Assembly: GCF_900104515.1 (NCBI RefSeq)
Contig: NZ_FNJL01000004.1
Span: forward strand, 62,001 to 126,000
Length of the DNA: 64,000 nt
Origin: Paracidovorax cattleyae
Lineage (GTDB): Bacteria > Pseudomonadota > Gammaproteobacteria > Burkholderiales > Burkholderiaceae_C
Direction of reading: 5' to 3'
This document shows positions 1 through 9,790 of this stretch, piece by piece. Both the position numbers and the translations under genes were made by a program. Every line of letters begins with the position of its first letter. Position 1 is the first letter of the stretch. Below the pieces are notes generated by a model. The model saw nothing but the letters and a program-made list of their open reading frames with translations. It ran no database searches and had not been told where the DNA came from.

Positions 1-410
1 TCACCCAGCTCACCGTGAACGAGGTGAAGGCCACGGTCAAGGTCTTCGACAACAACGACGACGCGTTCAAAGCCCTGCGCGCCGGCACGGTGACGGCCTT
101 CGCCCAGGATGACTCGCTGCTGCTCGGCCTGGTGGCCCGCAACAAGGCGCAGGATGCCCTGGCGCTCAGCAACTTCGTCCTGTCCGTGGAGCCCTACGCC
201 ATCATGGCGCGCAAGAGCGACACCGCGCTCATGGCTGTGGTGGACCGCACGCTCGGCAGGCTCTACACCAGCCGCGAGATCGATCCCATCTACAAGAAGT
301 GGTTCCTGAACGACCAGATATCCATCCCGGTGGGCCGCCTGACGCGCGAGGGCTTCAGCCGTCCCAACAAGGAAGCGGGTGTGGCGATGATGCTCGGCTA
401 CTCGCTGTAG
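1..410 (+). CDS. Amino-acid ABC transporter substrate-binding protein, 3' end only
   Basis: The reading frame is open from the left edge (codons in phase from base 3) to a TAG at 408-410, giving about 135 C-terminal residues. The text resembles the second lobe of family 3 periplasmic binding proteins (GltI/HisJ type), with a DDSLLLGL stretch after an AFAQ segment and the usual PIYKKWF segment before the tail. It would bind a polar amino acid in the periplasm for an ABC importer whose other genes lie outside the window. Its 3' end overlaps the convergent decarboxylase gene by 56 bases. The substrate cannot be read from this fragment. Confidence 0.85.
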   Translation, partial: TQLTVNEVKATVKVFDNNDDAFKALRAGTVTAFAQDDSLLLGLVARNKAQDALALSNFVLSVEPYAIMARKSDTALMAVVDRTLGRLYTSREIDPIYKKWFLNDQISIPVGRLTREGFSRPNKEAGVAMMLGYSL

Positions 411-1866
411 ACGCGCGGGTTGCGAAGGCGGCAATGTTGTCCAGGAGGCTGTCGAAATCCTCCGCGGCAAGGCAAGGGTTCAACAGGGTCAGCTTCAGCG
501 CCGCGTGTTGCTGGACAGTCGTCTCCCCCAGTACGGCTATGCCGTGTTTGAGAAGTTCGGCACGAAGCCTGCGGTTGAAATCGTCGATATCAGTACCGGG
601 CATGGGGCCGGTGTACCTGAAAAGAATCGTTGTCAGGCTCGGCTCGGCCAGGAGCTCGAACATGCTGCGGCATCGTATGGCCTCGGCAACCTCGCGCGCC
701 TGTCCAAGCAGGTGGTCGATCATCTCTCCCAGCACTTCGGTGCCGACCGCCCGGAGCATCATGTAGACCTTCAAGGCGTCGAAGCGTCTCGTCGTGGAGA
801 TCGTCTTGTCCACGAGGTTGGGAAGATCATCGGTTTCGCGGTTCAGGTATTCGGCCTGGTAGAGCAGGTGCCTGAAGCGTTCCCCTTCGCGGAACAGCAG
901 GGTCCCGCAACTCACGGGCTGGAACCACAGCTTGTGGAAATCGGCCACCATCGAATCGGCCTGCTCGATACCGGCGAGCCGGTGCCTGTGGCGGCCCAGC
1001 ACCAGGGCAGAGCCGTAGGCGCCATCCACATGGAACCATAAGCCGTGCGCCCGGGCGATTTCGCCCATGCGCTGCAAATCGTCGATGGCGCCATGGTCCG
1101 TGGTGCCCGCCGTTCCCACCACGGCAAAGGGGATCAGGCCCTCCTGCCGCAGCGACTCGACCGTTGATGTCAACTCGTCCACGTCGATGGTGCCGTCGTT
1201 TCCGGTCCGCACCTTCACCACGCCGCGCTGCCCCAGCCCCATGATGAAGGCTGCCTTGTCCACCGTGAAGTGGCTCTTGGCCGAGGCGATGATCCTCAGC
1301 CTGGGGAAAAAATCGGGCATGCCGTCACGCCTGGCCTGGTGCCCGTGGTACGTCCACAGGAACCAGTCCCGCGCCGTGAGCAGGGCCATGATGTTGCCCT
1401 GGGTACCTCCGCTGGTAAACACACCGTCCGCCCCGGGGGGGTATCCGAACAATGCGCAGAGGTGGTCCACGACCCGTTGCTCGACAAAAGTGGCGGAGCC
1501 CGACTGGTCCCACGAATCCATCGAAAGATTCTGTGCCGCGATGAAGCTTTCCGCAGCGATGCCGCTCAGGAGTGGTGGCGTGTGCAGGTGGGCGATGCAA
1601 TGCGGATGCTGGACGATGATGGCATGCGCAGCGATGTCCTGGCGTACTTCCCGGATCACCCGCTGCAGCGGTGCCACCGCTTGCACTCCGAGGTCACGCC
1701 GGAAGACCTGCTCGCGCAGATCGGACGGCTCCCTGCCCGAATAGGGGCGCGCCGCAGTCTCGAAAAGACTCGACAGTTCCTCCACGCAGGACGCCATCAC
1801 GGCACGATAACGATCAGCACCTCCGCTGCCCGTCCGGATGAAATGCTCTTTCCACGATTCCGTCAC
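355..1866 (-). CDS. ddc: L-2,4-diaminobutyrate decarboxylase (PLP group II)
   Basis: 503 residues, the usual length for the family. It decarboxylates 2,4-diaminobutyrate to 1,3-diaminopropane in the cytoplasm. The PLP lysine is K312 in the motif FHKLWFQP, with D281 in HVDGAYG contacting the pyridine nitrogen and an upstream TSGGTQGN phosphate loop (151-158). The C-terminal 15 or so residues are Ser/Ala-rich and probably disordered. Its ATG overlaps the aminotransferase stop by four bases (1863-1866), so the two are translationally coupled, as in rhizobactin and acinetobactin-type pathways where the pair makes diaminopropane. Other group II decarboxylases (glutamate, aromatic amino acids) are similar; the aminotransferase next door decides the call. 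Confidence 0.9.
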   Translation of the reverse strand: MTESWKEHFIRTGSGGADRYRAVMASCVEELSSLFETAARPYSGREPSDLREQVFRRDLGVQAVAPLQRVIREVRQDIAAHAIIVQHPHCIAHLHTPPLLSGIAAESFIAAQNLSMDSWDQSGSATFVEQRVVDHLCALFGYPPGADGVFTSGGTQGNIMALLTARDWFLWTYHGHQARRDGMPDFFPRLRIIASAKSHFTVDKAAFIMGLGQRGVVKVRTGNDGTIDVDELTSTVESLRQEGLIPFAVVGTAGTTDHGAIDDLQRMGEIARAHGLWFHVDGAYGSALVLGRHRHRLAGIEQADSMVADFHKLWFQPVSCGTLLFREGERFRHLLYQAEYLNRETDDLPNLVDKTISTTRRFDALKVYMMLRAVGTEVLGEMIDHLLGQAREVAEAIRCRSMFELLAEPSLTTILFRYTGPMPGTDIDDFNRRLRAELLKHGIAVLGETTVQQHAALKLTLLNPCLAAEDFDSLLDNIAAFATRASTASSRASSPHPLPCWDG

Positions 1867-3272
1867 CGTGCCTGCTCCGTGGCCTGCATGGCGTGTGTGA
1901 AGGCCCGGGCCGCAAAATCGATCTGATCATCCGTGATGTTCAATGGGGGGAGGAAGCGCAAGACCGCGCCATGCCGTCCACCCTTTTCTATCATCAGGCC
2001 ATGCCGCAAGGCCGCGGCCTGAATCCGGGCCGCGCGCTGCCCGTCGGCAAGCGGTTGACCCAGCGCATCCACGCGTTTCGGGTCAACGATTTCAAGGCCC
2101 AGCATCAAACCCTTGCCGCGGACTTCCGCAATACACGGATGGTCCTGCCGTAGCGCTGCCAGCCTGCTGCTCAGGCTGGCTCCCATGCGGTCCGCATTCA
2201 GGGCCAAGCCATCGCGCTGGATGATCTGCAATGTTCTGGTGCCGGCAACCATGGCCCACTGGGTGCCCCGGAAGGTGCCCGCGTGCTCCCCCGGGGTCCA
2301 GTTGTCGAACCGCTTCTTGAACACCAGGCACGAAAGAGGGAGCCCGCCACCGATAGCCTTCGACAGTACGAGGATGTCCGGTTCCACACCCGCGTGTTCG
2401 AAAGCGAAGTGGCGTCCGGAGCGAGCAACTCCGCACTGGATTTCGTCGAAAATGAGAACGATACCCAGTTCGGATGTGATGCGCCGGATTTCCCGCAACC
2501 AATAGTCCGAGGCCGGTAGAACCCCTCCTTCGCCCTGAATGGGTTCCAGAATCATGGCGGCGGGCTTGACCATACCGCTTTCCTGGTCATGCAGCACGGA
2601 TTCGATGTACCTGATCGATGCCCGTTCACCGGCCTCTCCGCCGAGGCCGAACTTGCAGCGCAGGCCGTAGGGAAATGGGAAGAAATGCACATCGGGCATC
2701 AGCCCGGTGCGCCGCTGCTTCGCGCCCAGGTTTCCCATCAGGGCCTGCGCACCGTTCGTCATGCCATGGTAGGCGCCATGGAACGCGGCGATGTTGTGGC
2801 GTCCCGTGCATTGCTTCGCCAGTTTGATGGCAGCCTCCACGGCGTCCGATCCCGACGGACCGCAGAACTGAATGCAGGAGTCCTGGGTGAAGCTGGCAGG
2901 AAGAAATCCCATGACTTCCTGTATGAGCGCGTCCTTGGAAGGTGTCGCCACGTCAAGTGCCTGCTGGGGAATGCCTGATTGGATCGCGGCCACCACCGCT
3001 CCTGTCACTTCGGGGTGGTTGTGACCGAGTGCCAGTGCTCCGGCTCCGGCCAGGCAATCCAGATAGCGCTGGCCCAGCGTGTCTTCAACGATGGCTCCCT
3101 GGGCCCTGCGGATTGCCATGGGAAAGCGCCGGGGGTAGGACCGCACCTCCGATTCCAGACGCTCCTGGTTCCTCAGTTCCACTCCCTGCTGGAACCGGCG
3201 CTGGGGAGTGGGTTCAATGGGGCCGCCGATGTCCTGCGGTGCCGGGAAGGTGAAATCCAGAGGGTTGTTCAT
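1863..3272 (-). CDS. dat: Diaminobutyrate--2-oxoglutarate aminotransferase
   Basis: 469 residues, a class III PLP aminotransferase. It transfers an amino group from glutamate to aspartate semialdehyde to give L-2,4-diaminobutyrate. The PLP lysine is K305 in LVLSKAIGGG, with DEIQCG (276-281) before it and the FCGPSGSDAVE phosphate-binding segment near 137-146. It lies directly upstream of the decarboxylase and overlaps both neighbours by four bases (ATGA at 3269-3272 and 1863-1866). There is no ectoine synthase or other ect gene nearby, so an ectoine role (EctB) is unlikely; the pair points to diaminopropane supply for the biosynthetic operon. Confidence 0.9.
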   Translation of the reverse strand: MNNPLDFTFPAPQDIGGPIEPTPQRRFQQGVELRNQERLESEVRSYPRRFPMAIRRAQGAIVEDTLGQRYLDCLAGAGALALGHNHPEVTGAVVAAIQSGIPQQALDVATPSKDALIQEVMGFLPASFTQDSCIQFCGPSGSDAVEAAIKLAKQCTGRHNIAAFHGAYHGMTNGAQALMGNLGAKQRRTGLMPDVHFFPFPYGLRCKFGLGGEAGERASIRYIESVLHDQESGMVKPAAMILEPIQGEGGVLPASDYWLREIRRITSELGIVLIFDEIQCGVARSGRHFAFEHAGVEPDILVLSKAIGGGLPLSCLVFKKRFDNWTPGEHAGTFRGTQWAMVAGTRTLQIIQRDGLALNADRMGASLSSRLAALRQDHPCIAEVRGKGLMLGLEIVDPKRVDALGQPLADGQRAARIQAAALRHGLMIEKGGRHGAVLRFLPPLNITDDQIDFAARAFTHAMQATEQAR

Positions 3273-4642
3273 GATGCTGTGCCTGCCATGGTGGGCCGCC
3301 GGCTGGAGGCTTCTTCCTTCCAGCGATCTTCGATGCCAAAGGTTTGGAAGGCGGTCTTGTGGGAAGTGGGGTAGCGCGGGAACCCCAGCAAGCCGTTGAC
3401 GATGGCGGCGTTGCGATGGGCGCCGAGTCCGAGATCCGGAGCAGCGATGCCGTGGGTGTGCATTTCAGCGTTCTGAACGAAGATCCGGCCTGAACCGTTC
3501 CATCGGGCCTTCAGCGTGTAGTCGCGCCGCACGGCCGGGCGGCCTTGCCCGTCGAAGGCGAGCAACGGCCTGAGTCTGTCCACGCAGGGAGGGAACACAT
3601 ACCGATAGCCCGATCCCAGCACCACGGCCTCGGTGTGGAGGTCGAAATTTTCCTGGAGATCGAGGTGCCGGAACGAAAGCTTCCAGCCGTTGCGGGTGCC
3701 GGATGCTGTGAGAAGCTCGCTTCGGGCCTGCAGGACGGTGTGTGTTTCCGCGCCGTCCGCCGATTGCTCATACATGCGGTCGTAGATGGCCGCGATGGTG
3801 CTGAACGAGATGCCCTTGTACCAATGGCCCTGCTTCGAGAGTATTTCCTTGCGCTTCGCTTCCTGTAGTCCGAAGAAATGCTCTATGTAGTCCGGCGAGA
3901 AATGCTCCAATCCCAGCTTCGAGTACTCCATGGGGAGAAAGCCGCTGCCACGGGTGAGCCAGTTCAGTTCGTATCCGAACTGCTTCCGGCCTTCCAGCAG
4001 GTCCAGGAAACATTCCGCGGCGCTTTGCCCGCCCCCTATGACCGTGATGCTCCGCTTCGCATGCAGATGGGGCCTGGCGAATGCATACTGCGACGAGTGG
4101 ATGAAATCCGTACCGTTCAGCAGGGCCGACAGTGCATCCGGCGTCGAAGGGACCGTGCCTATGCCCAGGACGATGTTCTTCGCGAGATGCCTCGAGAGTG
4201 CCCGGGTCGCCGTGTTCCTTACCGTCACGCAAAATATCGAATCCTGCGCCTCGATGTCCACGACTTCCATCGAGAACCGCAGGCTGCGGAGCTGTTCGGC
4301 AACCCAGCGGCAGTACCTGCTGTACTCCGTGCGGGCGATGTGGAACCTCTCGTAGAAGTAGAACTGGTAGAGGCGCCCGTGCTCTTTCAGGTAGTTGAGA
4401 AAGCTGAAGGGGCTGGTGGGATCGACCATGGTGACCAGGTCTGCCATGAAGGGAACCTGGAGATAGCAGTTATCCAGCAGCAGTCCTTCGTGCCAGACGA
4501 ATGTGCCCCTGGTGTCAAAAAATATCGCCTTCACGGCATCGATGGGGTGCAGCAGCGCTGCCAGCCCCAGATTGAACGGACCTATGCCGATCCCAATGAG
4601 GTCGAGTATGTCTTCGGCTTCTTGCCCATCGCTCATATTCAT
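3269..4642 (-). CDS. Flavin-dependent N-monooxygenase (IucD/SidA/PvdA family), amine N-hydroxylase
   Basis: 457 residues from the ATG at 4642, chosen because AGGAAG sits five bases upstream; an ORF reaching 4747 has no family-like text in the extra part. The FAD site GIGIGPFNLGL is at 17-27 and the NADPH site VIGGGQSAAE at 201-210. The C-terminal HTHGIAAPDLGLGAHR resembles the conserved end of lysine/ornithine hydroxylases. It should oxidise a primary amine to a hydroxylamine using NADPH and O2. The adjacent diaminobutyrate aminotransferase and decarboxylase suggest 1,3-diaminopropane as substrate (as for RhbE of rhizobactin 1021), but lysine, ornithine or diaminobutyrate cannot be excluded. 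A 163-base gap separates it from the upstream GNAT gene, the widest inside the operon. Confidence 0.85.
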   Translation of the reverse strand: MNMSDGQEAEDILDLIGIGIGPFNLGLAALLHPIDAVKAIFFDTRGTFVWHEGLLLDNCYLQVPFMADLVTMVDPTSPFSFLNYLKEHGRLYQFYFYERFHIARTEYSRYCRWVAEQLRSLRFSMEVVDIEAQDSIFCVTVRNTATRALSRHLAKNIVLGIGTVPSTPDALSALLNGTDFIHSSQYAFARPHLHAKRSITVIGGGQSAAECFLDLLEGRKQFGYELNWLTRGSGFLPMEYSKLGLEHFSPDYIEHFFGLQEAKRKEILSKQGHWYKGISFSTIAAIYDRMYEQSADGAETHTVLQARSELLTASGTRNGWKLSFRHLDLQENFDLHTEAVVLGSGYRYVFPPCVDRLRPLLAFDGQGRPAVRRDYTLKARWNGSGRIFVQNAEMHTHGIAAPDLGLGAHRNAAIVNGLLGFPRYPTSHKTAFQTFGIEDRWKEEASSRRPTMAGTAS

Positions 4643-4805
4643 GGCACTTCCTGCGCATCTGCAATGCGTGTTTGTTTGCCGCCAGCCCGCGCAGTAACCT
4701 GCACTGGCCACTGGCTGAAGGCCGGCGAATCCTCGCCGCCTTCTCACCTGGCTTTACCTGCTGGAGCACGGGAGTCGACCAGCACCCCTTGCAGGTGCGG
4801 GATGC

Positions 4806-5264
4806 TTACGCGGCCGGGCATTCGAGCATCTGGTGATAGGTGATGTAGACCTGCTCCCGCTCGTATCCCAAGGATTCGTAAAGGCGCTGGGCGATCTGGT
4901 TGGTCGTGGCGGTGTCCAGCGTCAACCGCTGGGCGCCTTCGCGCGCGAATTGGTCGGTGATGTAGTTCATCAGGTATCGCGCGTACCCATGCTGACGCGC
5001 GGCCTTGGCGACGTAGAGATCCGAGAGGTAGTAATAGGGCCGCATGGCCAGAGAGCATGTGGCCGGATAGAGCTGCGAGAAGCCGACGGGCTTGCGGTCC
5101 CCGTCGAGCAGCAGAAAGATCTTCGAGCGTTCTTTCTCGAGGTTGGACTGGATGAAGGCGCGAGAGGCCGCAAGGTCGTCTTCCTGTTCGTAGAAGATCC
5201 GGTAGTCGTTGAACAGGCCTGCCAGAACGTCGAGTTGTTCCAGGGTGCATTGGATGACTTGCAT
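4806..5264 (-). CDS. GNAT-family N-acetyltransferase
   Basis: 152 residues from the ATG at 5264; the open frame extends to 5552, but the extra 96 residues are Arg/His-rich shadow translation and overlap the VOC gene. The acetyl-CoA loop is represented by QHGYARYLM and the C-terminal helix by AQRLYESLGYERE, both typical of GNATs. In this operon it is placed to acylate an amine or hydroxylamine, the step done by RhbD/IucB-like enzymes in hydroxamate pathways, although it is a small simple GNAT rather than a close IucB relative by eye. It follows the VOC gene after 17 bases. The acyl donor and acceptor are inferred only. Confidence 0.75.
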   Translation of the reverse strand: MQVIQCTLEQLDVLAGLFNDYRIFYEQEDDLAASRAFIQSNLEKERSKIFLLLDGDRKPVGFSQLYPATCSLAMRPYYYLSDLYVAKAARQHGYARYLMNYITDQFAREGAQRLTLDTATTNQIAQRLYESLGYEREQVYITYHQMLECPAA

Positions 5265-5281
5265 GTTGATTCCGTGGGGGG

Positions 5282-5728
5282 TTAGTGGACTTGCCCGATT
5301 TCGACCTGCACACCATTGAGATCCCGGAAGAAAAATGCCTTGTAGCCTCCCAGTTCGTGGGCCGTGTAGGGCTCCGGCGTGGTGGGATCGATGCCCAGCG
5401 CTTTCACCCGTTGGAAAACGCCTTCGATGTCCTCGACCATGAAAGCGAGATGGATGCCGCAGACGTCGCTGTGGGCTGCCAGGAGATGCCGGCCCTTGGA
5501 GGTGTGGTGTTCGATGAGTTCGAAATTGCGCTGGCCGATGCGGGCCATGCACGAGTGGTAATCCGGCTTCTCGACCCGAATGATCTGCCCCACTCCGTCG
5601 CCGCTAATGTGGACCGGCTCCTCGTAGATTTCGACCGTGGTGATCTGTCGATAGAAGGCGATCGTGTCCGCGATGCTGTGGACTGTCAGGCCAATGTGGT
5701 TCAGCTGGGGGAGCAGGGGCGTTGTCAT
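5282..5728 (-). CDS. VOC-superfamily protein (glyoxalase/epimerase fold)
   Basis: 148 residues, single vicinal-oxygen-chelate protein. The start LNHIGLTVHSI and the middle DVCGIHLAFMVEDIEG contain the metal-ligand positions (His near 11 and His near 93), with a final Glu near 144 in VQVEIGQVH; the layout resembles methylmalonyl-CoA epimerase. It probably binds a divalent metal and catalyses an epimerisation, isomerisation or oxidative step on an operon intermediate, or confers self-protection by binding the product. Its start overlaps the stop of the A-T gene by four bases (5725-5728), so it is coupled to it. Confidence 0.7.
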   Translation of the reverse strand: MTTPLLPQLNHIGLTVHSIADTIAFYRQITTVEIYEEPVHISGDGVGQIIRVEKPDYHSCMARIGQRNFELIEHHTSKGRHLLAAHSDVCGIHLAFMVEDIEGVFQRVKALGIDPTTPEPYTAHELGGYKAFFFRDLNGVQVEIGQVH

Positions 5729-7431
5729 GGATGAGGTATCGCGTTGTACAGAAAGTGGGGCGTGGGGTTATCGAGAAACTCCGAGAACCGGATGCGCGTT
5801 CCGAAGCGTTCCTCCATGGCGCTCAGCAGGCGGATCGCCTTGATGGAGTTCCCGCCGACCTCCTGGAAGTCGGAATGGGCATCCAGCGAGCCCTGCGGGA
5901 GATCCAGGATTTCCTCCCACAGGGACAGGATGGGCTCGCAGGGCCGGCTGGAAGCACCCGCCACATGCCGTGGCGCAGTGGCTGGCAGGGCATCGAAATC
6001 CACTTTGCCGCTGGCCTTGAGGGGAAGCTGCTGTATCGGGATGAAGCACTGCGGTACCTTGTAGTCGCTCAAGTGCTGAGCAAGCTGCTGGCGCAGTGCG
6101 TCCAGCCCTATCTGCGGGGGCAGTGCGACATAGGCGACCAACTGTCCCTCCGGTGACAGCCTGACCGCCGCCTGCAGACACCCCGACTGCACCAGGGCGC
6201 CTTCGATTTCCTCGAGTTCCACGCGAAATCCGCGGACCTTCACCTGCCGGTCCAGGCGCCCCAGGAAATGAAGATCACCGTGGACATCCCGTTCGACGAT
6301 GTCTCCAGTCTTGTAGAGGCGGCCTTCATCCACTTCGGGGCAAAGGACGAACTTCCGCGCGGTCGCCAGAGAGTCGCCCATGTACCCCGGTGACACCATC
6401 AAGCCGGCGACGTGCAGTTCTCCCCGAACTGTCGGCTGCATCTGTTCATCCAGGACATGCAACCGTGCGCCGTCGATAGGCTGCCCGATGTTGGTCCGCG
6501 CCTGATATGCCTCCATGCGCTTGAACGCCACGAGGACAGTGCACTCCGTGGGGCCGTAGAGGTTGTAGAACCGCCGCTCCGCCGCCCACGCCTGGATGGC
6601 CGCAGGACTGCAGGCTTCTCCGCCCGTGAGCAGGGTCTCCAGGGACGGGAACTGCTGCGGGTCGAGCACGGAGAGCATGGCTGGCGGCAGGAACGCCTGA
6701 TGGATCCCGTGGCGCGCGCAGAACTCCGCGAGCCCGGTGGCGGACAGCCGCTGGTCATCGTGGGGAATGCAGAGGGTGGCACCTGCCAGGAGCGCAGGGA
6801 AGATGTCCAGTACCGAGGCGTCGAAGTTGATCGTGGAGTACTGCAGTACCCGGTGGGATGCCTTCAGCGCCATCTCGCGGAGCATCCAGTCGACGAGGTG
6901 CAGTACGCCGTGATGCCGGATTTGCACGCCTTTCGGGCGCCCGGTGGATCCGGACGTAAAGATGGTGTAGCAGCGGTCCTGCCCCGTTGCACGACATGGG
7001 AATGCCCACGCTGCGGACTGCGATGGACGGCTGTCGGCGGCTTCTCCGGGCGGGGCAACGCATACCCCGGAGACCGGGAGCCGGGTGCCGGCCGCCGCCA
7101 GAACCAGCCTGCATTTGCAGGTCTCCAGGATGTGCGCCTGCCATTGCGCAGGGAGCGAGGGATCGACAGGAACATAGCTCGCGCCTGTGGCGAGAATGGC
7201 CAGGATCGACGCATAGAGATCGGTGCTCTTTCCCATGCAGATGCCGATGGCGTCGCCGCTGCCCGCTTCGCGGCCGAGGTGCGTCTGGAACCAGATGTCG
7301 ATCGATCGGGCGATTTCTGCAATGCGCAGGCCCAGGTCCTGGTAGCTGACCGTTTGTGCATCGGAGATGAGCGCCGCAGCTTGAGGCTGCCGACGCACGA
7401 TTTCCGAGAGCCGGTGCATCACACTGGTCAT
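5725..7431 (-). CDS. Stand-alone NRPS adenylation-thiolation (A-T) didomain protein
   Basis: 568 residues from the ATG at 7431, which overlaps the upstream stop by four bases; the frame runs on to 8235 but only antisense-like text is added. A-domain cores: A3 IFTSGSTGRPKG at 157-168, A4 INFDASVLDIF (D204, the alpha-amino anchor), A5 YGPTECT at 292-298, A8 RGFRVELEEIEG and A10 lysine K476 in LKASGKVD. The C-terminal carrier domain has VGGNSIKAI with S529 as the phosphopantetheine site. No condensation, thioesterase or reductase domain follows. It should activate an amino acid as AMP-ester and load it on its own carrier arm. Reading the GrsA code positions by eye gives D-A-L-F-L-G-L-V-L-K, a hydrophobic pocket. 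Confidence 0.88.
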   Translation of the reverse strand: MTSVMHRLSEIVRRQPQAAALISDAQTVSYQDLGLRIAEIARSIDIWFQTHLGREAGSGDAIGICMGKSTDLYASILAILATGASYVPVDPSLPAQWQAHILETCKCRLVLAAAGTRLPVSGVCVAPPGEAADSRPSQSAAWAFPCRATGQDRCYTIFTSGSTGRPKGVQIRHHGVLHLVDWMLREMALKASHRVLQYSTINFDASVLDIFPALLAGATLCIPHDDQRLSATGLAEFCARHGIHQAFLPPAMLSVLDPQQFPSLETLLTGGEACSPAAIQAWAAERRFYNLYGPTECTVLVAFKRMEAYQARTNIGQPIDGARLHVLDEQMQPTVRGELHVAGLMVSPGYMGDSLATARKFVLCPEVDEGRLYKTGDIVERDVHGDLHFLGRLDRQVKVRGFRVELEEIEGALVQSGCLQAAVRLSPEGQLVAYVALPPQIGLDALRQQLAQHLSDYKVPQCFIPIQQLPLKASGKVDFDALPATAPRHVAGASSRPCEPILSLWEEILDLPQGSLDAHSDFQEVGGNSIKAIRLLSAMEERFGTRIRFSEFLDNPTPHFLYNAIPHP

Positions 7432-8399
7432 GCCCCCTCCCCGAAAACGTCGGTTCTTTCGAGGATGCAGGCACCCCACTGGAACGGTCCGGCACTGAAA
7501 AGCATGGTCTTCTGGCCTGTGCCGACCCTTGTCAGGCGACCGGCGTGGTGGAGGTTGATGAGGTTGTCCGAGCCGAAACAATGCGCGTGGCTGGCGATGG
7601 TGTGCGTGAATGCCTTCGCATAGTCCAGCCCGGCGATCTGGCAGTAGAGACGGCTGATGTCGAGCGAATAGTTGTTGGAGATGAGCAGGTCTATCTCGTC
7701 GGCGCGCATCGTCGCGCTTTCGAGGGTCTCTTCCATAAGGCGGGCAATGCAGCGGATTTCTTCTTTGAAGGATGTCCGGATGGCTTGTCGTCCATCCCAC
7801 TTGTTGATGATGCGCCCGACCAGCCGGTAATCCAGTGATGCCGGAAAACTGCTGAAGATGCATGCTGCGGCCGCATCGCCGGTGAGGTAGGGGAAGTCCG
7901 GGTTCTCCGCATACAGGCGTTGCAATCCGTCCTGTGCCTTGTCGAAACTGGCGACAAGGATGTGATCGCACTGTCCCGATTCGATCAGGCCCGTTGCGAG
8001 CTTCGCGGCCCAGTGAAAGCCTGCGCATCCAGCCATGCCCAACTGGTAGTGCGGAGCATGGCAAAGGCCCAGGCGGGCATCCAGGACGCCCAGCCAGCTT
8101 CCATCCAGGTTGTCCCGGGCGTCCAGCCCGTTGGATGTGAGGAAGACGGCGTCGATTTGCGATGCCTGCCGGCCGGCCGATGCCATGCACTGAGTGATGG
8201 CAGATTCCACCAGATCGGCGATGTCGTGGTCCCATTCGGGGAACGTATCTGAACCGTGGTTCGGATTGCGCAGCCTGGTCCGCATGGCCTTGTCGCTGAT
8301 CGCTTCTTCGAGGGGCACCAGCGGCCCCGCCGCGTAGCAGGCCGCTCCGATATGGACGGGCCTGCGTGGCACAGCGTTGTGTGAACGAGCCGCCGTCAT
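7428..8399 (-). CDS. KAS III-like (FabH/CerJ fold) acyl-transferring enzyme
   Basis: 323 residues from the ATG at 8399, four bases inside the cupin stop. The thiolase-fold nucleophile is C125 in GMAGCAGFHW. The position where FabH has the His of its HQAN motif reads LLISNNYS (N242-N243), and the later Gly-Asn-Thr loop reads HAHCFGSDN (271-279), so the usual Cys-His-Asn triad is altered. That pattern fits KAS III relatives that move an acyl group to an amine, alcohol or carrier protein without decarboxylative condensation, but His271 or His273 could still serve. In context it may acylate, or extend, the amino acid on the neighbouring A-T protein or the N-hydroxy amine. Confidence 0.75.
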   Translation of the reverse strand: MTAARSHNAVPRRPVHIGAACYAAGPLVPLEEAISDKAMRTRLRNPNHGSDTFPEWDHDIADLVESAITQCMASAGRQASQIDAVFLTSNGLDARDNLDGSWLGVLDARLGLCHAPHYQLGMAGCAGFHWAAKLATGLIESGQCDHILVASFDKAQDGLQRLYAENPDFPYLTGDAAAACIFSSFPASLDYRLVGRIINKWDGRQAIRTSFKEEIRCIARLMEETLESATMRADEIDLLISNNYSLDISRLYCQIAGLDYAKAFTHTIASHAHCFGSDNLINLHHAGRLTRVGTGQKTMLFSAGPFQWGACILERTDVFGEGA

Positions 8400-8974
8400 G
8401 TTGCTGCTTCCTGGCAGGGCACCTTCATTCCTTCCAATACAGCGGCTGCCGTGCAGCGACCTTGAGGAGCTTCCGGGTCTGGCTCCACGTACCCCTTGAG
8501 TCCTTGAGGCAGCACGAAGATGTCTCCTGCCGAATAGGTCTTGCCCAAGCCATCTGTTCCGGTGACGGTCACCATGCCCTGCATGATGTGGATCACCTCT
8601 GTTTCCGGCCACGGCAGGATTTCCAGACCCACTGGCTCGATTTCGCAGACCTCGATGGCCGCCACCTGGCCGGGAAGGGTGCAGGGAACGTGGCACCTGT
8701 ATGTGAAATGCATGCCGTTTCGGGTGATGTAGTGCGGGTCCCTGTCCGAAGCCTTGACGGTACGAGCCGTGGCGGGTACGGACTTCGGAACCAGTACAAC
8801 CGGGCGTAAATCCGGTGCCGCTGCCGGGGAGGACGCGGGCGCTGCCTTGGTTGCTATGGCCAAGCGGACCGGTATCCCGGAATTCGCGGCCATGGCCGCG
8901 TGCGATCCCGCCAGGGATGCGCAAACAAAAAACAGGTACGTCACCTTGCCAAGGCGGGATTGGATCAAATACAT
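8396..8974 (-). CDS. Exported cupin-domain protein, first gene of the operon
   Basis: 192 residues. An N-terminal hydrophobic stretch (about 12-30, ending SHAAMA) looks like a signal peptide, so the protein is probably periplasmic. After an Ala/Pro-rich linker (about 40-70) comes a single small cupin barrel of the Cupin_3 type (WPETEVIHIMQGMVTVTG, then AGDIFVLPQGLKG). The canonical two-His metal motif is degenerate. The start at 8974 has no clear ribosome-binding site; a GTG ten codons later is an alternative. It heads the biosynthetic operon and overlaps the next gene by four bases, which ties a secreted protein to a cytoplasmic pathway. Function is unknown: sugar-like or product binding, or a late modification outside the cytoplasm, are possible. 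Confidence 0.65.
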   Translation of the reverse strand: MYLIQSRLGKVTYLFFVCASLAGSHAAMAANSGIPVRLAIATKAAPASSPAAAPDLRPVVLVPKSVPATARTVKASDRDPHYITRNGMHFTYRCHVPCTLPGQVAAIEVCEIEPVGLEILPWPETEVIHIMQGMVTVTGTDGLGKTYSAGDIFVLPQGLKGYVEPDPEAPQGRCTAAAVLEGMKVPCQEAAT

Positions 8975-9790
8975 GTGCGGAAGGTTTGGGGGGATTTCCG
9001 GATTTCGTAAGATATGGCATCAATGGGTGCACAGGATTTTCGAAATCGCCAGGCAATGGGGGAAATCCGAACAATAACTGCCAAAGCTTTTGATGTCGGG
9101 GTATCGGAGTGAATGGAGGCTTCCCCGTCAGATAGCGTCGGCGTGGTTCAGTGAACTGCGAATGCAGGACGGGAAACTGCAGTATCCCTGCTGGAGCGTC
9201 CGTCGAATCAGGAGGCAGAATTGGTTTTTGACGACACATGGTGCGTATCACGGCGAGACGAAAAAATCCGAGTGGCCGGTAGATGCAGTTCACAAGAAAA
9301 ACACCTCATGGACCAATAGCAAGCACATGCATCGGGTTCGGAGGTGTGGATTTCCAGTCAATGCCCATTGGTGTTTTGTGGATTGTCCTGGGAATGCATC
9401 GTGGATTCCCTGTCGTTTTTTGCAGCCTGAGAATACAACGGAAATATGGGTTTGTCACCTTGGCGACAATAATAATAGTATTGATTTGATATAAAAATAA
9501 TTTGGAAAGAATATTTGGTGCTGCATACAAGCAGTCCAGGAGTCATGAAGCAAGCACTGCCTGACTGCGCAGGGGACTCGCAGGAAACTGGGACAGGATC
9601 AGCTCAGCCTGTGGCTGGCAGTCCGCGTAATCTCCGGGCAGGCCTTACGCTGCGATGGCGGCCCCATTCCGGGCCTCCGGCGCCCCCGGCCTACACTGCA
9701 AGCACGCCGGTTGCCTCCATACTGCCGGCTCGATGTTTCGCGGCGGGCGCCGGCATGGCGCGCCGCCTTTTCCGATCGACCGAGGTGGCG
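8975..9790. other. 816-base intergenic region, AT-richer than its surroundings
   Basis: No convincing gene. Open frames of 60-134 codons exist (for example 9090-9494 plus strand) but have no recognisable protein text, no ribosome-binding site and atypical codon use. Base composition is visibly more AT-rich than the flanks, most strongly at about 9465-9520 (runs such as AATAATAATAGTATTG and TATAAAAATAATTT). It must contain the promoter of the leftward biosynthetic operon and perhaps one for the rightward ROK kinase gene. A weak, partial match to the 19-base Fur box can be read at 9465-9483, too weak to call. The composition hints that the left arm of this region was acquired or is a relic. Confidence 0.6.

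What the first reader, a model, noticed from the sequence alone, without database searches (positions are those of the whole stretch)
355..8974. Compact biosynthetic operon: diaminopropane supply, N-hydroxylation, A-T protein and KAS III-like enzyme, with no assembly enzyme
Eight minus-strand genes, six of the seven junctions overlapping or within 17 bases. They encode dat and ddc (known as the 1,3-diaminopropane pair of hydroxamate siderophores such as rhizobactin 1021), an IucD/SidA-type N-hydroxylase and a GNAT. Unlike those pathways, no IucA/IucC-type NIS synthetase, NRPS condensation, thioesterase, TonB receptor or exporter is present. Instead there are a lone A-T didomain, a KAS III-like protein, a VOC protein and a secreted cupin. 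I infer a small metabolite made from N-hydroxy(acyl)-diaminopropane and an activated hydrophobic amino acid or acyl group: a hydroxamate, N-oxidised or N-N product, possibly a metallophore, toxin or signal. I know of no described cluster with this set.
Basis: partly seen in the sequence, partly recalled or inferred. Interest (0 to 1): 0.78.

Follow-up and report, generated by a model that had tools for sequence, protein, structure and literature searches.

The report
Small mobile metabolite-making gene cluster
Eight neighbouring genes, apparently brought into this bacterium as a block of foreign DNA, look like a pocket-sized assembly line that joins an oxidised diamine to a hydrophobic amino acid, and one of the genes is kept alone by relatives that lack the rest, as an antidote would be; no described product matching it turned up in the searches made here.

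Summary
The operon is real (355-8974, minus strand) and more than a chance grouping. The order KAS-AT-VOC-GNAT-NMO recurs in 11 genomes (Paracidovorax/Acidovorax, Massilia family, Pseudomonas), with a cupin gene in front in 10. Dat-Ddc follows in the 6 Burkholderiales loci and none of the 5 Pseudomonas loci: a diamine-supply module, not the core. In the window the block is a ~9.2 kb low-G+C insertion. "No assembly enzyme" is probably wrong: the KAS III-like protein has lost the Claisen His/Asn arrangement and carries the Cys/His/Asp (H-x4-D) triad of KAS III-fold acyltransferases (ChlB3, CerJ, AfcL; its family includes azaserine AzsD), so it probably moves the A-T-loaded amino acid onto the N-hydroxylated diamine. 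It fails as a rhizobactin-type siderophore pathway: no NIS synthetase in the genome, no RhbD-like acyltransferase, no TonB gene among 20 neighbours sampled. New here: the GNAT occurs alone, intact and under purifying selection, in 8 genomes without the cluster, five times at the cluster's locus (both flanks in one, left flank only in four). That fits a self-immunity gene and suggests an acetylatable growth inhibitor. The product is unknown; nothing was tested biochemically.

The parts
8396..8974 (-). Cupin_3 (EutQ-like) protein with a signal-peptide-like N-terminus (judged by eye), first gene; accessory and apparently dispensable
   Evidence: homologue found in 10 of 11 clusters; C-terminus out of frame in the window against five aligned relatives; only a ~15-residue remnant in L011
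7428..8399 (-). KAS III-like acyltransferase, proposed assembly enzyme; C125, H273, D278
5725..7431 (-). A-T didomain; specificity residues D-A-L-F-L-G-L-V-L identical in 7 of 7 aligned copies
5282..5728 (-). VOC protein with putative metal ligands H11/E70/H93/E143 conserved in 7 of 7; highly conserved (67-99% identity)
4806..5264 (-). GNAT N-acetyltransferase, proposed self-immunity gene
3269..4642 (-). flavin N-hydroxylase (NMO) of the diamine type
   Evidence: nearest solved relatives include a desferrioxamine-pathway enzyme and a putrescine N-hydroxylase; 46% to the rhizobactin 1021 locus
1863..3272 (-). Dat, diaminobutyrate--2-oxoglutarate transaminase
   Evidence: (TIGR00709 540.9 bits, cut-off 401.6)
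355..1866 (-). Ddc, diaminobutyrate decarboxylase-like
   Evidence: (RhbB-type model, 400.8 bits, below its 900 cut-off)
411..9678 (.). approximate extent of the inserted block; related genomes join its two flanks within 16-170 bases
   Evidence: G+C of 355-8974 62.1% against 70.0% in the rest of the window

Best explanation
A horizontally acquired, condensation-domain-free pathway for a small N-oxidised aminoacyl-diamine that probably inhibits growth, with its own immunity gene. Steps: (1) Dat and Ddc make 1,3-diaminopropane (homology; likely); the Pseudomonas versions lack this module and must use another or existing diamine. (2) NMO N-hydroxylates one amine (homology; likely). (3) The A-T protein loads an aliphatic or other hydrophobic amino acid on its carrier domain (residue code; substrate class inferred). 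(4) The KAS III-like protein takes the aminoacyl group on Cys125, activated by His273/Asp278, and passes it to the N-hydroxy-diamine, giving an amide or hydroxamate; that it is an acyltransferase is supported by the triad and by AzsD of the same family, the acceptor is inferred. (5) The VOC enzyme modifies the product; reaction unknown. It may act on the vicinal-oxygen N-hydroxy-amide (speculation). (6) The GNAT acetylates and disarms the product in the producer (inferred from solo copies). (7) The secreted cupin is a dispensable accessory.
For: Order conserved in 11 loci, with unrelated flanks between genera. KAS residues C125/N243/H273/D278 in 41 of 41 rows examined: the window, 39 of the 70 loci, and the presumed AzsD. 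ChlB3's triad is Cys113/His296/Asp301, the same H-x4-D (PMC9573744, passages); AfcL, a Cys/His/Asp KAS III-like protein, makes a peptide bond in a condensation-domain-free cluster (PMC12186527, passages); AzsD moves an acyl group between carrier proteins (PMC10445470, passages). In the FabH alignment the canonical His falls on Asn242 and the canonical Asn on His273. A-domain code identical in 7 of 7. GNAT: solo in 7 of 318 Pseudomonas and 1 of 17 genomes of the window's genus, in one 19-row clade with 11 cluster GNATs (94/97), intact, dN/dS against cluster copies 0.19-0.25 and 0.06-0.28 (31 of 35 pairs; 4 undefined); five of the eight at the cluster's locus. VOC: solo in 0 of 10 VOC-bearing genomes (with 39, 62, 94).
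Against: No biochemistry; product unknown. AzsD's shown acceptor is another carrier protein, not an amine, and only one carrier domain is seen here. Foldseek ranks ordinary FabH structures level with ChlB3. The 8 solo GNATs come from about three lineages, so counts overstate independence (Fisher p 0.022, ignores this). In the four Pseudomonas solo loci only the left flank is collinear with the cluster loci; the right flank differs, and whether the cluster was lost or not yet gained there is not shown. In the odilorhabdin case cloned orphan oatA-like genes gave no significant resistance (PMC8749412, passages). The GNAT could instead be biosynthetic, making the hydroxamate. No exporter gene is in the operon.
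Confidence: 0.5

Rival explanations
1. Hydroxamate siderophore or metallophore pathway of the rhizobactin/schizokinen kind, with the GNAT making the hydroxamate and the assembly gene elsewhere.
For: Dat, Ddc and NMO resemble the rhizobactin 1021 locus at 52%, 39% and 46%; NMO is of the siderophore diamine class. The P. oryzae upstream region has a better Fur-like score (18 of 300 shuffles as good).
Against: No IucA/IucC family member in the window's genome nor in 4 more of the 7 carrier genomes searched; the other two carriers, P. avellanae and KNUC1026, have three matches each, in KNUC1026 over 3 Mb from the cluster. GNAT finds no relative in the rhizobactin locus (best E 0.56) and matches Acetyltransf_8 only weakly. 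No TonB gene among 20 neighbours sampled. Fur-box score ordinary in the window and in L012, L013 and L014. One hydroxamate per molecule would be a weak iron ligand (established knowledge).
Confidence: 0.15
2. GNAT is a biosynthetic N- or O-acetyltransferase and solo copies are merely ordinary polyamine or housekeeping acetyltransferases that the cluster recruited.
For: Related GNATs are common in Pseudomonas (117 of 318 genomes have one at E<=1e-25, the 11 close ones included); in Pseudomonas the direction of change is not shown and the right flanks differ.
Against: Solo copies form one clade with cluster copies, apart from the 15 other GNATs put in the tree; identity to the window's GNAT is 56-61% in 11 genomes, then drops to 48% or less. 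GNAT sits mid-operon in the same order at unrelated genomic sites. In the window's genus, eight genomes have the empty site with no GNAT at it, so the solo G992 copy is unlikely to be ancestral there.
Confidence: 0.35
3. N-N bond pathway: the N-hydroxylamine is esterified by the aminoacyl group and rearranged to a hydrazine or cyclic N-N product.
For: Distant KAS relatives sit in azaserine/triacsin-like clusters; cupin-MetRS homologues in 20 of the 74 loci L005-L078. N-hydroxy-diaminopropane could close to a pyrazolidine (chemical inference).
Against: No cupin-MetRS protein among the eight. This cupin looks secreted, shows no HxH metal motif in the alignment, is a remnant in L011 and out of frame in the window.
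Confidence: 0.1
4. KAS III-like protein makes a C-C bond (ordinary ketosynthase) on the aminoacyl thioester.
For: KAS III fold; FabH structures rank as high as ChlB3 in Foldseek.
Against: The Claisen His/Asn pair is replaced by Asn/His plus Asp in 7 of 7 orthologues; no malonyl-transferring partner gene in the cluster.
Confidence: 0.12

Closest known systems
AFC-BC11 pathway (afc, Burkholderia; PMC12186527)
   Same: Condensation-domain-free; stand-alone A domain, one carrier, PLP decarboxylase, and a Cys/His/Asp KAS III-like enzyme forming a peptide bond
   Different: 25 genes with a fatty-acyl ligase and membrane proteins, a lipopeptide product; in the passages read no N-hydroxylase, VOC or Dat is named. 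The window KAS found no Burkholderia record in the plasmid collection at 1e-8; whether that collection holds afc, and the AfcL sequence itself, were not checked
AzsD / Tri13 acyltransferases (azaserine, triacsin; PMC10445470)
   Same: Same KAS family by sequence (presumed AzsD 27% to the window protein) with identical C/N/H/D residues
   Different: Act between two carrier proteins in hydrazine-derived pathways
ChlB3 and CerJ (PMC9573744)
   Same: KAS III fold and C-H-x4-D acyltransferase triad; ChlB3 the best VIA match
   Different: 16-17% identity; move a methylsalicylate-type or malonyl group
Rhizobactin 1021 locus (Sinorhizobium meliloti pSymA)
   Same: Dat, Ddc and diamine N-hydroxylase front end
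   Different: No NIS synthetase and no relative of its acetyltransferase here
OatA odilorhabdin self-resistance GNAT (PMC8749412)
   Same: GNAT beside a biosynthetic cluster, with cluster-free copies in relatives
   Different: Cloned orphan oatA-like genes there gave no significant resistance; here the solo copies are intact and five sit at the cluster's locus

Membership tests
Rhizobactin/schizokinen-type NIS hydroxamate siderophore pathway | Dat, Ddc and diamine N-hydroxylase | tested here: met
   52%, 39%, 46% to the rhizobactin 1021 locus
Rhizobactin/schizokinen-type NIS hydroxamate siderophore pathway | IucA/IucC NIS synthetase | tested here: not met
   PF04183: 0 matches in G000
Rhizobactin/schizokinen-type NIS hydroxamate siderophore pathway | RhbD/IucB-type acyltransferase | tested here: not met
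   GNAT has no match in the rhizobactin locus (best E 0.56)
Rhizobactin/schizokinen-type NIS hydroxamate siderophore pathway | TonB receptor nearby and Fur control | tested here: inconclusive
   None among 20 sampled neighbours; Fur score ordinary in the window, better in L009; whole genome not searched for TonB receptors
KAS III-fold acyltransferases (CerJ/ChlB3/AfcL/AzsD) | KAS III (thiolase) fold | tested here: met
KAS III-fold acyltransferases (CerJ/ChlB3/AfcL/AzsD) | Cys-His-Asp triad, His and Asp five residues apart, canonical His lost | tested here: met
   C125/H273/D278 in 41 of 41 rows; canonical His aligned with Asn242
KAS III-fold acyltransferases (CerJ/ChlB3/AfcL/AzsD) | acyl transfer from a carrier protein | not testable with these tools
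   needs an enzyme assay
Condensation-domain-free NRPS-like pathways (AFC type) | stand-alone A and carrier domains with no condensation domain in the locus | tested here: met
GNAT self-resistance determinants | in the cluster, and able to persist without it | tested here: met
   11 of 11 clusters carry it; 8 solo copies
GNAT self-resistance determinants | acetylates and inactivates the product | not testable with these tools
   product unknown
Cupin-MetRS hydrazine synthetase pathways | cupin-MetRS didomain protein | tested here: not met
   no tRNA-synthetase domain in any of the eight proteins

The most novel reading that the evidence does not exclude
A new family of tiny growth inhibitors, aminoacyl conjugates of N-hydroxy-diamines, is made by a portable 6-gene core in which a KAS III-fold acyltransferase replaces the condensation domain and transfers an aminoacyl group from a lone A-T protein directly to a hydroxylamine or diamine; a VOC metalloenzyme then reshapes the N-hydroxy-amide; and a dedicated GNAT gives immunity that outlives the pathway as a solo gene in competitors.
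Probability: 0.35. Interest if true: 0.78.

Novelty: new variant of a known kind. Interest (0 to 1): 0.62.

Why it matters
It would be a very small peptide-type assembly system (one A-T protein plus one KAS III-fold transferase), extend KAS III-type amide formation to N-hydroxylated diamines, and offer a product with a predicted, testable immunity mechanism. The solo GNATs make a practical question (does this silent cluster make an antibiotic-like compound, and what disarms it?) directly testable.

Tried and rejected
Order- and family-level searches with the KAS protein at E<=1e-15 found only the window's own genome (1 of 399; 1 of 200), so relatives came from the genome-contig scan, whose candidate list stopped at 80 stretches: the 11 clusters are a lower bound. 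Plasmid tblastn with KAS gave only distant relatives; VOC gave none. Viral-contig scans: nothing. The VOC model was poor (pLDDT 62.8) and was not used. Fur-, lux-, PIP- and hrp-box scans upstream gave nothing convincing in the window; L009 has a better Fur-like score (18 of 300 shuffles as good), L010 41 of 300, the Pseudomonas loci ordinary ones. The L011 ORF 8463-8933 was first noted as a cupin (my second notebook entry) and then found to be a Gcw_chp fragment ending in a short cupin remnant. The script read the A-domain code in 5 of 7 rows (one row misread, one unread); I read the other two (L010, L012) from the printed alignment; the meaning of the code positions (GrsA numbering) and 'aliphatic/hydrophobic' are recalled. 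VOC ligand positions were assigned by recalled comparison with glyoxalase I. The KAS alignment A2 used 39 of the 70 loci. For the GNAT tree nine duplicate rows were dropped, and the 'other' group holds only 15 of the more distant matches. That the seven solo Pseudomonas genomes were among the 398 is read from their handle numbers, as the call lists only part of them. That L047 is the azs cluster and its KAS is AzsD rests on organism and neighbouring gene types, not on the accession. Identity of G994 with P. oryzae (L009) and G999 with SUPP3334 (L011) rests on equal coordinates. Paper searches that found no description of this cluster: (open-access library only; MIBiG not available). sought precedents. 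A fold-search absence was not used as evidence.
Full report
WHAT IS THERE. Their Pfam families are decarboxylase, class III transaminase, lysine/ornithine-type N-hydroxylase, GNAT, glyoxalase/VOC, AMP-binding plus carrier domain, KAS III and Cupin_3. Among the NCBIfam matches listed (best 25 per protein) only broad models (TIGR00709 dat; TIGR01733 AA-adenyl-dom) reach their cut-offs; the specific ones (RhbB-type decarboxylase, histamine N-monooxygenase) match well below theirs, so the exact reactions are inferred.

A FOREIGN BLOCK. The region 355-8974 has 62.1% G+C against 70.0% in the rest of the window, and third-codon G+C of about 0.7-0.8 against about 0.9 in most flanking genes. The flanks are an extracellular solute-binding-protein gene (left) and a ROK-family gene (right). 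Of 17 genomes of the window's genus examined, 4 carry the VOC gene (own, G991, G994 = P. oryzae and G999 = Acidovorax sp. SUPP3334, the last two identities by equal coordinates). The right flank was found in 16 of the 17. In 8 of these 16 the two flank matches lie 16 to 170 bases apart, so the window carries an insertion of about 9.2 kb. SUPP3334 is one of the 8: its cluster lies on another contig. Of the other 8, three have the cluster there, one (G992) has a lone GNAT, one has about 1 kb of other DNA, and in three the left flank aligns only in part.

CONSERVATION. A scan of genome contigs with the KAS family alignment gave 70 loci, of which the best six are orthologous clusters (37-92% KAS identity; the rest 31% or below). 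Genome searches added four more loci. With the window that makes 11. KAS-AT-VOC-GNAT-NMO occurs in this order in 11 of 11. A cupin homologue leads in 10 of 11; in the window its last ~30 residues are out of frame relative to five aligned relatives, and in L011 only a short remnant is left. Dat-Ddc follows in 6 of 6 Burkholderiales loci and 0 of 5 Pseudomonas loci. In three of the Pseudomonas genomes searched whole at E<=1e-20, a Ddc homologue is absent from two and a 29% relative is found in the third. A methyltransferase and a Pyridox_ox_2 protein lie between GNAT and NMO in Massilia frigida. Flanking genes differ between genera. The cluster is rare: VOC in 1 of 369 genomes of the class sample (the window's own), 2 of 245 of the Massilia family, 4 of 398 Pseudomonas.

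SUBSTRATES. The A-domain residues read D-A-L-F-L-G-L-V-L in 7 of 7 aligned copies (two rows read by eye); the lead Asp fits an alpha-amino acid and the rest a hydrophobic, probably aliphatic, side chain (recalled rules). NMO is nearest to diamine-type N-hydroxylases of known structure (6xbb; 5o8p, desferrioxamine pathway; 7us3, putrescine N-hydroxylase) and about 45-47% identical to plasmid-borne copies in Sinorhizobium meliloti and Picosynechococcus/Synechococcus. Dat, Ddc and NMO are 52%, 39% and 46% identical to proteins of the rhizobactin 1021 locus, whereas the GNAT has no relative there. The VOC protein keeps four putative metal ligands in 7 of 7 and is highly conserved (67-99% identity), but only weakly resembles solved epimerases and glyoxalases, so its reaction is open.

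THE GNAT AS AN IMMUNITY GENE. In the genus of the window, G992 has an intact GNAT (77-78% identical) between the two flanks where relatives carry the whole cluster, and no VOC. In Pseudomonas the GNAT occurs at 56-61% identity in 11 of 318 genomes; all other matches are 48% or below. Four of the 11 have the cluster; seven do not: none is among the VOC-positive genomes, and the stretches fetched around them (4 to 7 kb each side as a rule; 1.5 kb on the right in G762, where the contig ends) hold no other cluster gene apart from a 32% Dat-like match 5 kb away in G722. In four of the seven (G766, G762, G694, G792) the GNAT lies next to the same left flank as the cluster does in G592, G696 and G702, while KAS, A-T, VOC and NMO are missing; the right flanks are not collinear. 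The other three are elsewhere. A tree puts the 8 solo and 11 clustered GNATs in one clade (94/97) apart from 15 other GNATs, solo and clustered intermixed (4 label changes; at least 2 forced by starred branches). dN/dS between solo and clustered copies is 0.19-0.25 for G992 and 0.06-0.28 in Pseudomonas (31 of 35 pairs; synonymous sites are saturated in the rest and near saturation in several). VOC, by contrast, was solo in 0 of 10 VOC-bearing genomes. A simple Fisher test of 0 of 8 against 8 of 16 gives p 0.022, but relatedness makes this optimistic: the solo copies represent about three lineages. This is the pattern expected of immunity retained after production is lost, though loss rather than later gain is not shown in Pseudomonas. 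A caution from the literature: orphan oatA-like genes of the odilorhabdin system gave no significant resistance when cloned (PMC8749412, passages read).

WHAT IT IS NOT. Not an NIS siderophore pathway: no PF04183 gene in the genome, no TonB or NIS family among 20 sampled neighbours, no special Fur box in the window (the P. oryzae upstream region scored higher, with 18 of 300 shuffles as good). Not a cupin-MetRS hydrazine pathway, although many distant KAS relatives belong to such clusters (cupin-MetRS homologue in 20 of 74 loci).

VERDICT. A real, conserved, mobile and apparently undescribed pathway of a known general kind (condensation-domain-free, KAS III-type transfer), with a new combination of parts and an immunity-like evolutionary signature. 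Shown: anatomy, conservation, insertion, triad, solo GNATs. Inferred: every chemical step and the product's activity.

Noticed in passing
window 8396-8500 (cupin C-terminus): The window's cupin diverges from five relatives over its last ~30 residues because it is in another reading frame there; a natural frameshift or an assembly error in a 93-contig draft. Left as it is.
   Followed up: partly
L011:8463-8933: In Acidovorax sp. SUPP3334 a Gcw_chp-type protein runs straight into the last ~15 residues of a cupin, so the cupin gene seems to have been deleted there; Massilia frigida has a longer Gcw_chp gene just upstream of its cupin.
   Followed up: partly
L151, L153, L154 near the GNAT: The Pseudomonas locus that holds either the cluster or the lone GNAT also holds small genes that look like toxin-antitoxin pairs (recognised by eye; the one scanned, L153:6005-6319, had no Pfam match), as if it were an insertion hot spot.
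   Followed up: no
L005 (Sinorhizobium meliloti SM11 plasmid pSmeSM11b, 8869-18780): A KAS III-like gene beside a cupin-MetRS-carrier protein, iron-containing redox enzyme, acyl-CoA dehydrogenase and NRPS: an azaserine-like N-N cluster on a plasmid typed as conjugative.
   Followed up: partly
L030, L044, L053, L042, L029: Erwinia mallotivora, E. psidii, Lonsdalea britannica, Enterobacillus tribolii and Pseudomonas sp. S30 carry azaserine-like gene sets (KAS, iron redox enzyme, acyl-CoA dehydrogenase, lysine-type N-hydroxylase; cupin-MetRS seen within the stretch only in L029).
   Followed up: partly
L006 (Nostoc sp. UHCC 0926 plasmid pn4, 122-9816): A different small cluster with a KAS of the same family, an A-domain protein, a PLP decarboxylase, acyl-CoA dehydrogenase, cupin and haloalkane dehalogenase-like gene.
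   Followed up: no
L010:12317-14249 (Massilia frigida): A methyltransferase and a Pyridox_ox_2 protein lie between GNAT and NMO, suggesting a modified product in Massilia.
   Followed up: no
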